DNA of 64,000 bases, taken from Aphrophora alni. Its lineage: Eukaryota; Arthropoda; Insecta; Hemiptera; Aphrophoridae. A program made the position numbers and the translations under genes. Within the stretch, counting starts at the first letter, position 1, and each line of letters begins with the position of its first letter. The notes under the pieces were generated by a model, which saw only the letters and a program-made list of their open reading frames with translations, did not search any database and was not told where the DNA came from. Below, one piece after another: positions 1,975-34,745 of the stretch. The DNA lies in the NCBI GenBank assembly GCA_963513935.1, contig OY740770.1, positions 85,967,267-86,031,266 on the forward strand. Reading direction: 5' to 3'.

Positions 1975-2090
1975 CCTGATAGGAAAGATAAAAAGAAAGA
2001 GATTTAACCCAAGACTACATTAAGAAAGGTGTAGATCCAGCTACAGTCCTTGAGTCCTCCACACCCGCATTCACTATAAGAGAGCCCCTA
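1975..2090 (+). repeat. Dispersed repeat block D, copy 1
   Basis: An A/G-rich stretch leads into the shared phrase AAGGTGTAGATCCA, followed by CCTTGAG and a CACTATAA motif. The same order recurs at 15371-15490. Between the two, similarity is patchy and both copies look old. No coding potential is evident. D lies upstream of block C in both places, which suggests colinear duplication rather than chance. Confidence 0.5.
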
Positions 2091-3061
2091 TAAGTACCAA
2101 CTGTTGTAATCCCGAAATTAATTAGTAGTTTTTATTTTTGACATTTCAACGTTAACATACATTTTATCAATAAGAAAGTCGGTACCTATTATAACGGTTT
2201 ATTAAGTCACTTCTCTATATTCAACAGATTTGTGTAATAAAAACAACCCGAACTGTTTATATTTATAGCAGAGGGAATCGAAAATGCAGTACATTCCTGA
2301 CCGTCACGTGCCTTCCGTTAACCAGACACTTTACCTCTCATGCTACTGTTCACGTTGCTCGAATTTCTATATTTTTCTCAAGAACTGTTGATCCGATTTT
2401 CATGCTGTTTTCTGTTTTATATATGTACGTTATCTGGTTAGACTTTATTCTATGTTTGATTGGAATTGTTTCAAGCAATGTACATTTGTCTGTTTTAAAT
2501 GTATTACTTATTTAAAAGTTTATTTACAAGTCAATGAATTAATACATTTTCTTCAGAGGTTTTAATATTATAAGTGATTTTAGTATGACGCCGCCATAGA
2601 ACACAACTCGGGAGAATATAGCTATAACTTGCGCGATCAACGATGGGCTTCCAACTTTATGAATATAATCCACTTTTTACGAAATCTGTTTTACCTGTTG
2701 TGACTGACGGACGTACTTGCCAATAATATAGTTGTTTCTTAACGTTTGTTTTTTAATTTGTATGCTTTCATCGTTATAGGGAGCCATTTGTCTATTTTTA
2801 CGTTGCGTTTTAAAAGTAATCGGGCAATTAGTTAGTTTAGATTTAGTTATAGTATTGTTTTATATGTTTGAAATATAATATAGCCTAGCATGCAGTGGGC
2901 GAAACCGAGGGCAAACGAGTTTCTTATAAATATCTATATGGATATACACAAGTCAATTACCTGCTAACATAATCTATATGTAGACAATGATCACAACTTA
3001 TTTTATGTTCTGTTATCATGATACTAAATATATTAACTTTATTTCAAATATAGAAATTAAC
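2091..3061. other. AT-rich intergenic sequence
   Basis: I see no gene, RNA gene or clear repeat here beyond short A/T runs. Confidence 0.5.
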
Positions 3062-3374
3062 TAAACAGATATTGTTTTAACGTTTTACTTAACGTCATAA
3101 ATTGAATTATTTTCAAAAAAAGGTGTACTAATAATAATCTACTTTTTTTGTATTAAAATATATCATTTTCATGTTTGTATTTGGTTGATTTTTATTTTAT
3201 TTTTGTTCTACATTTAGGTAAACAGATATTGTTTTAACGTTTTACCTAACGTCATAAATTGAATTATTTTCAAAAAAGGTGTAATAATAATAATCTACTT
3301 TTTTGTATTAAAATATATCATTTCTATGTTTGTATTTGTTTGATTTTTCTTTTCTTTTTGTTCTACATTTAGGT
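3062..3374 (+). repeat. Tandem duplication, about 157-bp unit x2
   Basis: TAAACAGATATTGTTTTAAC begins at 3062 and again at 3219, and the two units stay aligned to about 3374 with a few substitutions and one- or two-base indels in A and T runs. The unit ends in a CTACATTTAGGT motif. It is a two-copy local duplication, not an array. Confidence 0.9.
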
Positions 3375-5290
3375 TAGATTATGTTTGTTATTTTATATAG
3401 TTTTTATTATTTATAAGTACAGTACTATTTAAAACTCTTGTTATGTTTTATTATGTGGTTCAGATGTATATTTATTTTGTATTGGATTGTGATAAATAAC
3501 TAGATAACTCATACAAATGGAAGTATATTGAATACGTTCACATTCATCTCAGGAACAACATAGAGTACGGTTAAAATGAAAAAAAAAATATATATCTTTG
3601 CTTAATTAAGGAATTCATAAATAAAGTGGCCATGAGGTAAAACCATTCGCATTAGGCAATATTTGAATAAAATAAGTTGCAATTTTTTACTCTTGGTTTT
3701 ATAACTTCATGTTTAAATTTGTAATTGAGGAAAAAGCTTGAACTAACATTTATATTATTGCAACAATTTATTAATAATCATATAAATTGTTAAGATGATG
3801 TAGGACTACGTCCATTAAATAGTTATTATTTAAAATGTTATTTGCTTCAAATAAGGGGAAAATATTGATTAATGTTTATAATTATCTGAAGTTAAAATAT
3901 TTAAATTTCAATTAAAAGTAAAATAATATACGTACATACATTTTTCACACAGTGTAAGTAATATTAGGTTTTAGCAATTATCATTCACGGAACGATTCTA
4001 CTAAAAAATATGATTCAATAGCAATCGTAACACAATTTTTATAAAAATAAAACACATCGTTACATAATATTAAAGTATATATTTAAAAAATGTTTATCCT
4101 AAGCAGCGTAAAAAGTTAAAGGTTTTCTCTTAAAACTACAAAAATAAAGTTTAAAAAGTTGAACTTCTTTAGTTTTTCGTTGTGTAGAAAAATATCCTTC
4201 AAGTCTTCGTTTAAAATAGTTCGTCAAATTTATTTACGTGATTGCTCATAACAAGTGTAAATTAATTAAATACCTTGTTTCTAACAACTCATGTTTCAAT
4301 ATTATTATTAATAATTTCAAAATCAGTTTGAGAATTTTTCTTTCGAAGATCTTGTACAACTTTAAGTTCTACATGTAATAATAAACGAGTGGTTTTGTAC
4401 GATTCGAAATAATTGAGTTATCGCTAGAAACTTTTTTTTACTGTATAGCTCTAATTTTAAAAAAACTGTATATTACCTAGATTTAGTTATAAGATATGTT
4501 GTAGTAATTTTTGTAACTATTAAAGATATAATAATAAAAATAATAACATGGACATTTACCAAGACTGTATTACTATAAAGAGTCAAGAGAAAAACCAATA
4601 TTTATTAATTAATATATAATATCAAATGAAATTACTTACTTACGGTATTATTGGTCAAGTTTTTCACGAACCGACTACATAATGTTTATTTTGCATCAAT
4701 AAACAATATAGATTCAGCTTAGTTGCGTGGGAATAGCGTGTTTAGTTTATTCAACATATAATTCGGTTTAAAAAAATTATAAAGGTTAGAAATAGTGACC
4801 AAGATGCTTAAATTAATGTTTCCCTTGGCTCACCACAGATTAATAATTGACAATGGTAATGTTTTCATTCAATATTATGCTGTGTTACTGTGGTTAATTG
4901 CGTATTAATACCAGGGGGAGAGGTGTTCGAGACTCTATACAAATTTCACAGGCTAACTTGTCTGTGACAATTAGAGCCATGGCATTGACTGGGGTATGAG
5001 AAACACTAAAATAATCAATATACCAATTCTTAAAATTCCTGATAAGACTAACTAAGTACACGATTACCAAGCCCTTCCAGATTAATCTTAACTGTGAGGA
5101 GAAAGATTGAGAGATAGGCAAATCAGGGGACCTGAAGTGATACATATATAACGTACATATTCTGAGGTGTACGGGATAATATCAGAACTGGAACGTTCTA
5201 TTTCCCCTGAATCGATATTCCGCAGTTGTATAAAGATATTCTTTGGAATTGATTGTTATGTTCGGGAAAATCTGAATGGGAATACAATAA
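3375..5290. other. AT-rich intergenic sequence
   Basis: Nothing recognisable. An 83-codon minus-strand frame at 4894-5145 lies in a slightly less AT-rich patch but shows no known motif. Confidence 0.45.
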
Positions 5291-5447
5291 AACCTGGTTT
5301 CACGTTTATAGTGAGTGTTAGTTAGCGATCAAAACACTTTCAAAAACCAACATAAAGTCAAACTTAGTTTGGGAATACCTGTCCAAACCTTAACTCCTTG
5401 TCCAGTAAAAGCGTATAACTTTGGTTTGAGTACCGGGACACAATAGT

Positions 5448-5675
5448 GTGGAGGGCAATAATCAGACAGATATGCCAGCTAATATTGGATCTGCAACCAA
5501 TCTTATGGGACATGAACTGGTAGTTAATGCCAGTGTGCTATGCAAGGACAGTCATCAACCAGTGATTAGAATAAATCACCAGGGAAGTTGGAACAGTCTT
5601 TCAGAGCATCATCTCAGCAAATTAGTAATGAATGGATTCATGCTTGCTGGATCTAGTGGCATAGCACTAATCTAG
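5448..5675 (+). other. Unassigned 75-codon ORF in a GC-richer island
   Basis: The frame starts MEGNNQTDMPANIG and ends at a TAG before 5680. Its composition is less AT-biased than the flanks, and an AATAAAA signal lies about 130 bp after the stop, near 5800. I recognise no domain. It could be a decayed exon, a processed-gene fragment or chance, since frames of this length are expected in a window this size. Confidence 0.15.
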
Positions 5676-5929
5676 AGCAGCAGGCGAATATTTAGGAGGA
5701 CTAAAATGACACAATAAGTATAGATGGATATAACAGAACAGTGTATCCTCAGTATATCACTGTAAAGTAATGTAGCCTGAAAAACTTTAATAAAATGAAT
5801 TGTTGTATTCAATACACCAACATTTGGACATTGTTTTTGCAACATTATTCATTAGTTCTTTTGGAAGGAGAATAATAATTGTTAAACATTTTTATTTCTC
5901 CCAAATGCAATAAATTAATCCAAAGTTTT

Positions 5930-33171: not shown

Positions 33172-33204
33172 GTCAGTCTATCTTTTGTAAAGGTTCACTA
33201 AGCA

Positions 33205-33545
33205 ATAATACATCTGATTACAGTATTGTAATGGAGAGGTTCCTTATTGACTAATGGCAAGGAAGGTAGAGACTGAACCATTAAATATTTTGGCTGCTAA
33301 AGTGGAAGTGGAGAGGGTTGGAGAGGTTCAAACAATTAATTGTTTTGCTTGTATTAACCCCCTCCTCTACTTCTCTGAAGGTTTACATTTCTGCCTTAGT
33401 GTGCACCGAGAAGGACTGCCTTTATCGAGTATGAATGTAAATTCAACCCCAGAAAACAAATATTTACAACAGTTAGAAATTGATACTCCGTGTATTTTGC
33501 TTTTTCTACCATTCACGTATTGAAGGAATAAATCATTTCATTTTA
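33205..33545 (+). repeat. Paralogous block Y, copy 2
   Basis: Copy of 26510-26870. The shared plus-strand frame starts at 33254 and ends in TGA at 33523. Confidence 0.88.
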
Positions 33546-34283
33546 CTGTATGACATTTTAAAACATTGATAATTTTATTTTAGATTTGTCATACCTCAGT
33601 AGTGATGCTATAGATAAATGAAATATTGTCTAAAATAACATTCGAAGTTAAATGTTATTTATTTAAGAAAATGAGAAGGCAACAACCCTTAATTTATGGA
33701 TTGACAACTAAAATAGGGGTATTTGAATAAAATATTTTCCTCTTCAAATTCGTTATTCAGAATTAATGTTTTTTTTTATTTATTTTTCATTACATTTTAC
33801 TATAGATAGTTTTATAACAAACTGAATCGATCTCTTTAAATGTACTGAAATAACATGCTACATGAAATTACATGGGTTCAGAAGGTATTGATGTTACTGT
33901 TGTATTTTCTAAAAGGCGTGATAAAACGTGAAAGTTACAGTCAAATTTAGGTATTGGTAATTGTTTGCTCATAAATACAACTGATTTTGTTTTAAATAAT
34001 TCACCAGCGGATTCATACATTACAGATTTTGATTAAAGTGTTTTATCAAAACTAAAGAATTTGTTTTTGGTGTTAAAAACAAAGACTTAGTTTCGAAGTA
34101 TAGGTGTTCGATGAAGAGAAGACATCCGGTTGTTTATGTCAGTATAATTTTGTCTGAAAATTGTCTCACTGAAACGGCTAAGCAACATTCGTTTCATTTG
34201 ATTTCAAAATTTATAATATATAATTACTTTGCCGAATCTTAAACAACATTTCACATAAATGTAAAAGTTTTGTTAAAATTATG

Positions 34284-34324
34284 TTTTTTTTTTTTTTTTT
34301 TTTTTTTTTTTTTTTTTTTTTTTT
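34284..34324. repeat. Poly-T tract, 41 bases
   Basis: Uninterrupted T run. It could be the reverse of a retroposon poly-A tail, but no element body was recognised beside it. Confidence 0.95.
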
Positions 34325-34454
34325 AACTAAATAAACTGTCGTTCCGTGTTATTTAATCCAAATAGGCGGCACCAAGTATTTAGAACTTTTCTTTAATTCA
34401 GCAATTGCATTTTTTAAAAATTATTTGCTCTAATGAAACAAAATTATATAAAAG

Positions 34455-34745
34455 AAAAACGTATTATTTTGTATTTAATCAGTATTAAATTACGTGGAAA
34501 ATTAGATTTTCTACTCACAATGACGAAGAGTTTTGCATGGCTTTGTTCCAGGTATCTGCCAGGTGCCAGGAAAAGTTGGTCGTTCTGAAATCTCATAACT
34601 TTATCGATATTTCCCGCCTCCATCTTTCTTTCTCTGTCACACTCTATCACTATCCCCTTTTTGCAATGTCTCATTTAACACAAAAAGCCTTTTTGCTTTT
34701 TCTCTCTTTAAATCTGTCTTAGTATTACATCTTTATGTCTTATGT
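34455..34745 (+). repeat. Paralogous block Z, copy 2
   Basis: Copy of 25610-25915. Here Z follows Y, whereas in the other tract it precedes Y. Confidence 0.88.

What the first reader, a model, noticed from the sequence alone, without database searches (positions are those of the whole stretch)
1975..34745. Colinear series of paralogous islands in otherwise unalignable AT-rich DNA
Seven block families recur in nearly the same order: D-C-A-B (2.0-7.8 kb), D-C-A-X-Z-Y (15.4-26.9 kb) and A-B-X-Y-Z (29.8-34.7 kb). Blocks of 100-735 bp align, while kilobases between them do not. That is what duplicated conserved non-coding elements or enhancers of a tandemly expanded locus would look like. A cluster of unnamed repeats is the rival explanation; the Z/Y order swap and the rearranged spacing count in its favour.
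Basis: partly seen in the sequence, partly recalled or inferred. Interest (0 to 1): 0.8.

Follow-up and report, generated by a model that had tools for sequence, protein, structure and literature searches.

The report
Old triplicated non-coding DNA with islands
A stretch of AT-rich, animal-like DNA without recognisable genes was copied in tandem long ago, and short non-coding pieces of the copies have stayed nearly unchanged while the rest decayed, as duplicated gene switches might, although no related genome was at hand to prove it.

Summary
The blocks are real. All seven families recur on one strand in the stated order, including the Z/Y swap; an eighth small family (K) fits the chain. But the DNA between blocks is not simply unalignable: at lower stringency about 700 bp of the A-X interval of copies 2 and 3 aligns at 62% (149 bits; null maximum 47), and 58% of copy 3 aligns to copies 1/2. 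This is an old tandem duplication, three partial copies at 9-14 kb spacing, rather than scattered repeats. Divergence varies within the copy 2-3 pair: JC 0.19 (Y) and 0.28 (X) against 0.55 (W). Five blocks hold a 41-85 bp stretch with at most two differences. B's core is shared by copies 1 and 3 and missing in copy 2. No sign of coding or conserved RNA folding was found. Block X is a degenerate array of ~140 bp units, paired unit by unit between copies. Best reading: duplicated cis-regulatory elements (about 0.52); it works like duplicated CNEs, but membership is untested: no related genome, no gene, no genome-wide copy number (genome search did not complete). A second old tandem duplication with its own array lies at 43.7-54.0 kb.

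The parts
1978..2079 (+). block D, copy 1
   Evidence: aligns to 15379-15484, 59.7 bits against null maximum 42.5
   Evidence: 2972-3114 and 3221-3271 align to 15649-15789, 51.1 and 52.5 bits; tandem repeat
5864..6192 (+). block C, copy 1; core 5940-6019 (at most 2 differences in 80)
   Evidence: 236 bits; core
6694..7282 (+). block A, copy 1
   Evidence: 152 bits to copy 2; three-way alignment
7624..7824 (+). block B, copy 1; core 7739-7779
   Evidence: 129 bits to copy 3; core
15379..15484 (+). block D, copy 2
15649..15789 (+). block K, copy 2
17393..17714 (+). block C, copy 2; core 17464-17543
20354..20966 (+). block A, copy 2
   Evidence: 152 bits to copy 1; its part 20430-20691 168 bits to copy 3
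21721..22419 (+). interval W, copy 2: weakly alignable, the most diverged aligned part; its first bases match the 3' part of block B of copy 3, so B's core would lie just upstream and is not recognisable
   Evidence: 61.8%, 149 bits; JC 0.55; three-way alignment
23047..24075 (+). block X, copy 2, with a degenerate tandem array of five ~140 bp units starting at about 23399, 23550, 23697, 23829, 23965
   Evidence: 549 bits to copy 3 over 23047-23899; units
23533..23617 (+). core of X (mostly unit 2): at most 2 differences in 85 bp, 60 bp identical run
25558..26354 (+). block Z, copy 2; core 25722-25787
   Evidence: 426 bits
26509..26890 (+). block Y, copy 2; the least diverged block of the chain
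   Evidence: 341 bits over 26509-26861; JC 0.19
29767..30141 (+). block A, copy 3
30145..30345 (+). block B, copy 3; core 30260-30300
30283..30945 (+). interval W, copy 3 (overlaps the 3' part of B)
31300..32188 (+). block X, copy 3: units at about 31646, 31791, 31949, 32074
33205..33583 (+). block Y, copy 3
34404..35176 (+). block Z, copy 3

Best explanation
An animal-like, AT-rich non-coding segment was tandemly duplicated at least twice long ago, giving copy 1 (from about 2 kb), copy 2 (15.4-26.9 kb) and copy 3 (29.8-35.2 kb). The copies have decayed (about 0.5 substitutions per site in W) and have taken up insertions. Short elements in them evolve slowly, seen as 41-85 bp cores inside islands of about 200-850 bp. 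Shown: common descent, shared order and strand, unequal rates, no coding signal found, one core present in two copies and absent in the third. Inferred: the slow parts are under purifying selection as clusters of protein-binding sites, that is duplicated cis-regulatory elements of one or more genes outside the window, kept in more than one copy and lost in others as redundancy allows. The Y/Z swap is most simply a further local duplication of a Z-Y pair followed by loss of opposite members (inferred).
Against: No cross-species conservation, chromatin or expression data, and no target gene in the window. A and Y show no significant clustering (A runs p 0.14 and 0.24, windows 0.66 and 0.67; Y run 0.14, window 0.08), so for them uniform decay or, for Y, a later duplication is enough. 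Gene conversion between copies could imitate the X core. The B result is descriptive: the core was chosen because copies 1 and 3 agree there, so the Fisher value (3e-6) is not a fair probability, and copy 2's bases there are placed only by the alignable 3' flank; replacement in one event would look the same. The B model does not find copy 2 above the null (6.6 bits, null 6.7). Genome-wide copy number unknown.
Confidence: 0.52

Rival explanations
1. Old tandem segmental duplication with no function: patchiness comes from insertions, deletions, local re-duplication (Y) and occasional gene conversion, not from selection.
For: One interval does align. Y is the least diverged, without significant clustering, and out of order, as a later separate duplication would be. 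Insertions are present: a Helitron-like relic at 8500-8775 and many microsatellites. A second tandem duplication of similar kind at 43.7-54.0 kb shows the region is prone to them; there Q is 0.08 and P 0.32 apart, so uneven distances are not special to the chain.
Against: X differs two-fold in distance from W, which lies beside it in the same pair of copies. Short cores occur in three different copy pairs: C in 1-2, B in 1-3, X in 2-3. Conversion confined to one short core per island is contrived.
Confidence: 0.24
2. The blocks are exons or repeat arrays of a tandemly duplicated non-coding RNA gene family (long non-coding RNA, small-RNA precursor or piRNA locus); X works as a transcribed tandem-repeat array.
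For: X is an array of about 140 bp units and a neighbouring block Q an array of about 205 bp units. A long-conserved, transcribed satellite array is known in fish (PMC8210747, abstract seen). A piRNA-making satellite of Aedes is recalled; one search shows only that papers with that term exist.
Against: No Rfam match at gathering score. No conserved fold of X units: 0 predicted pairs. Of the 90 bp windows with low z-scores, few lie at matching places in two copies; exceptions are Y (26594 and 33290, z -2.2 to -2.9) and roughly Z (25959-25974 and 34774, minus strand, z -2.3 to -3.6), out of up to 134 windows per block and 40 shuffles each.
Confidence: 0.14
3. A cluster of dispersed transposable-element or repeat copies.
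For: A repeat at 29011-29086/49053-49128 (96%) shows that dispersed repeats lie in the region. D and K are short. Genome-wide counts could not be made.
Against: The 17 block copies paired lie in one chain on one strand (Y and Z swapped), with none above the nulls in the other 28 kb. The A-X interval shares homology too.
Confidence: 0.06
4. The blocks are exons of a fast-evolving tandem protein family.
For: Tandem spacing of about 10 kb. Translated similarity is longest in Y on the plus strand (92 aa, 70%, frames 26556-26864 and 33251-33520) and in X (58 aa, 74%).
Against: Substitutions spread evenly over codon positions (chi2 0.09-1.69 in nine alignments; Y 20/15/15); a scan for short coding stretches gave no convincing window, without a formal null. 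Translated matches occur in several frames and on both strands. No Pfam family in 106 island ORFs. The Y ORF found no homologue (the database may hold few animals).
Confidence: 0.04

Closest known systems
Duplicated conserved non-coding elements (dCNEs) of vertebrates (PMC2020477 and PMC1896008, passages seen)
   Same: Non-coding; paralogous copies share short strongly conserved sequence; uneven rates and loss between copies, as those papers report for duplicated Fugu regions.
   Different: dCNEs are conserved between species and lie near paralogous developmental genes after whole-genome duplication. Here the copies are in tandem within 33 kb, no gene is in sight, and no second species was available.
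Regulatory elements of the achaete-scute complex in flies (PMC4832353, abstract and section 17 seen)
   Same: Small, colinear islands of strong non-coding conservation in otherwise turned-over DNA; [quoted passage not shown]
   Different: Target genes and enhancer activity are known there. Here neither is, and the similarity is between copies within one genome.
Long-lived conserved satellite DNA (CharSat01-52 of characiform fish, PMC8210747, abstract seen)
   Same: Short arrays of head-to-tail units that persist for a long time.
   Different: X units pair one-to-one between copies (same unit 0.70-0.89, all other pairs 0.47-0.67), so there is no sign of homogenisation; no further X array was found in the window.

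Membership tests
Duplicated conserved non-coding elements | non-coding | tested here: met
   no coding signal found:
Duplicated conserved non-coding elements | significant similarity between paralogous copies | tested here: met
Duplicated conserved non-coding elements | slower evolution than flanking DNA | tested here: met
   between copies only: X 0.275 against W 0.55, cores of X, B, C, Z; not significant within A and Y
Duplicated conserved non-coding elements | conservation between species | not testable with these tools
   no animal genomes held; exact cores absent from viral contigs (X, C, B, Y) and bacterial/archaeal contigs (X), X absent from phage records, as expected whatever the truth
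Duplicated conserved non-coding elements | located beside paralogous developmental genes | tested here: inconclusive
   no gene recognised among the ORFs scanned; flanks beyond the 64 kb unknown
Duplicated conserved non-coding elements | enhancer activity | not testable with these tools
   needs reporter or chromatin assay
Dispersed transposable-element family | many copies at unrelated places | tested here: inconclusive
   none above the nulls outside the chain in 64 kb; genome-wide not answered
Dispersed transposable-element family | defined ends (terminal repeats, target-site duplications) | not tested
   block ends looked at by eye only in the alignments
Satellite DNA (block X) | head-to-tail units | tested here: met
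   a model of units 1-2 only finds further units in copy 2 at 34.1, 15.0 and 14.9 bits against null maximum 7.4; the third and fourth units of copy 3 (4.0 and 5.5 bits) fall below the null
Satellite DNA (block X) | units homogenised within an array | tested here: not met
   within-array identity 0.47-0.64, same unit between copies 0.70-0.89
Protein-coding tandem family | codon-position bias of substitutions | tested here: not met

The most novel reading that the evidence does not exclude
Enhancer-like elements that are themselves old degenerate tandem arrays (X, ~140 bp units; Q, ~205 bp units), duplicated in tandem as whole blocks without their gene, the X array keeping a unit-by-unit identity and one unit nearly frozen: a regulatory cluster that grows by copying modules rather than genes.
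Probability: 0.15. Interest if true: 0.7.

Novelty: new member of a known kind. Interest (0 to 1): 0.42.

Why it matters
If the cores are regulatory, three copies within 33 kb of one genome give a natural experiment on how regulatory elements are kept, lost and reordered after duplication (the B core kept in copies 1 and 3, missing in copy 2). If they are not, the case shows how an old tandem duplication can look like conserved islands when only strong alignments are drawn.

Tried and rejected
Coding exons: six-frame paralogy, codon-position test, window scan, Pfam on 128 of the 176 ORFs of at least 55 aa that were not low-complexity and on 106 of 150 island ORFs of 30-54 aa; not supported. 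The three weak Pfam hits other than PIF1 (E 0.006-0.009, one ORF each) are about what 128 scans give by chance.

Structured RNA: Rfam at gathering score and by E-value on 1900-35300 (29 matches, all below gathering score; the lowest E-values are AT microsatellites hitting AT-rich microRNA models), 90 bp fold scans, fold of X units; little support, Y and Z weakly excepted.

Cross-family links. A and Y share about 45 bp (80%, E 3.4e-6; best shuffled pair 5e-5; A model on Y 16.6 bits, null 7.0). B and C share a weaker stretch (10.9 bits, null 6.7). But over all cross-family pairs there were 104 hits at E<0.05 against 89 with shuffled partners, and an antisense C1-A3 match scores as well (E 2.9e-6), so I do not build on these.

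Taxon: not identified. The Helitron-like ORF and the Y ORF found no candidates. Literature: for duplicated CNEs, tandem loci and repeats; for conserved satellites; for one core's letters (0 papers); for an aphid gene family with microexons (listing only; set aside because no coding signal was found).

Seen by eye only: RNase H-like retrotransposon relics near 5430-5672 and 38320-38640 (Pfam on 5430-5672 and 38394-38633 did not confirm them).

Full report
What was checked. The window is 29.5% G+C. ARAGORN finds no tRNA gene, Rfam nothing at gathering score, and no gene was recognised among the ORFs scanned. Order in copy 1 is D-K-C-A-B, in copy 2 D-K-C-A-X-Z-Y, in copy 3 A-B-X-Y-Z. D1 to D2 is 13.4 kb and A2 to A3 is 9.3 kb.

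The intervals. After masking simple repeats and using a +1/-1 scheme, the A-X interval of copies 2 and 3 aligns (21721-22419 to 30283-30945, 723 columns, 61.8%, 149 bits). The best null score for that comparison was 46.8 bits over ten Markov-4 subjects and a reversed one. Significant alignments cover 3138 of 5410 bases of copy 3, 3315 of 6508 of copy 2 from A to Y, 1182 of 5588 of copy 2 from D to A and 1415 of 5847 of copy 1. Further matches that fit the chain but stay below the null maximum are not counted: 9541-9640/22152-22248 (39.7 bits), 24201-24288/32386-32473 (41.1), 22891-22976/31179-31273 (42.5), 7845-7911/30398-30465 (42.5). So at least the A-to-Z part is duplicated as a whole and the islands are its best-kept parts; between D and A most of the DNA stays unaligned. 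In copy 1 a Helitron-like helicase relic lies at 8500-8775 (PIF1, 24.4 bits, cut-off 25.9).

Three copies of B. Block B is kept in copies 1 and 3. In copy 2 the alignable stretch begins inside B's core (21721 against 30283; the core in copy 3 is 30260-30300), and the core is not recognisable. In the 36 aligned core columns (7740-7775), copies 1 and 3 differ at 2, and copy 2 agrees with copy 3 at 14; in the 62 columns of the near 3' flank copy 2 agrees with copy 3 at 40 (Fisher 0.02, but the flank is in part where copy 2 was found to align). The Fisher value of 3e-6 is not used, since the core was chosen for agreement of copies 1 and 3. This is what loss of a redundant element would look like, and also what replacement of the core by one event would look like. 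Block A is roughly star-like (0.33, 0.37, 0.40 over 402 columns), so the duplications lie close together in time.

What the islands are not, as far as tested. Substitutions show no codon-position bias in 9 of 9 alignments (chi2 0.09-1.69). Translated similarity appears in several frames and on both strands, longest in Y (92 aa, 70%). Of 128 ORFs scanned against Pfam one, the Helitron-like relic, has a meaningful match, and 0 of 106 island ORFs match. Nine X units share no predicted fold.

Block X. A model built from units 1 and 2 only finds a unit at 23970-24073 (34.1 bits) and weaker ones at 23829 and 23699 (15.0 and 14.9 bits), null maximum 7.4. The third and fourth units of copy 3 (31949, 32074) score 4.0 and 5.5 bits, below the null, and rest on the iterated model and on their pairing with copy 2. 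Same-numbered units of the two copies are 0.70-0.89 identical, all other pairs 0.47-0.67. The array is therefore older than the segmental duplication and has not been homogenised. Unit 2 holds most of the near-frozen core.

A second case in the same window. 43.7-48.4 kb and 49.6-54.0 kb are a further old tandem pair (P at 189 bits, Q at 539 bits, reversed null 39.7). Q is an array of ~205 bp units with a third site at 63.3-63.7 kb. Two of its unit pairs stand out between copies (0.95 and 0.88); a third candidate pair (47642 and 53387) does not (0.60).

Mechanism. I take the islands for duplicated cis-regulatory elements: clusters of protein-binding sites kept by selection in more than one tandem copy. 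Shown: duplication, order, unequal rates, a core missing in one copy, no coding or folding signal found. Inferred: selection, protein binding, regulatory role, target gene outside the window. The closest precedents are vertebrate dCNEs (PMC2020477, PMC1896008, passages seen) and the fly achaete-scute complex, whose authors propose that some enhancers were duplicated with their genes and that one was lost beside one copy (PMC4832353, abstract and section 17 seen). It works like these; it cannot be filed as one of them, because conservation between species, neighbouring genes and activity could not be tested.

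Noticed in passing
43710-44384/49609-50277 and 47423-48376/53131-54017: A second old tandem duplication (P, Q). Q is a degenerate array of ~205 bp units; two unit pairs are 0.95 and 0.88 alike between copies, a third candidate pair only 0.60; a third site lies at 63.3-63.7 kb. 5 of the 7 exact ACCACAAG/CTTGTGGT octamers of the window lie, one each, in Q units (the likeness to a Runx site is recalled).
   Followed up: partly
54834-56737 and 58892-60795: Direct repeats of 1904 bp (99.7% over the 1916 bp match) beginning TG and ending CA: a young LTR-type element with a 2154 bp internal part holding GGGCCAGAAGGGCCTCC-type repeats; no target-site duplication seen in the 8 bases on either side. 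Inverted 100 bp pieces at 54408-54507 and 60797-60895 flank it.
   Followed up: partly
8500-8775: Helitron-like PIF1 helicase relic (E 2.5e-5, just under the Pfam cut-off), followed by a 450 bp palindrome at 8944-9393.
   Followed up: partly
[not shown]
   Followed up: no
29011-29086 and 49053-49128: A 76 bp stretch, 96% alike, beside two long AG microsatellites: a dispersed repeat unrelated to the chain.
   Followed up: no
26609-26655, 33303-33380 and 20530-20603, 29874-29919: Blocks A and Y share about 45 bp around an AAACAATTA(A/T)TTGTTT near-palindrome; cross-family hits as a whole barely exceed the shuffled control.
   Followed up: partly
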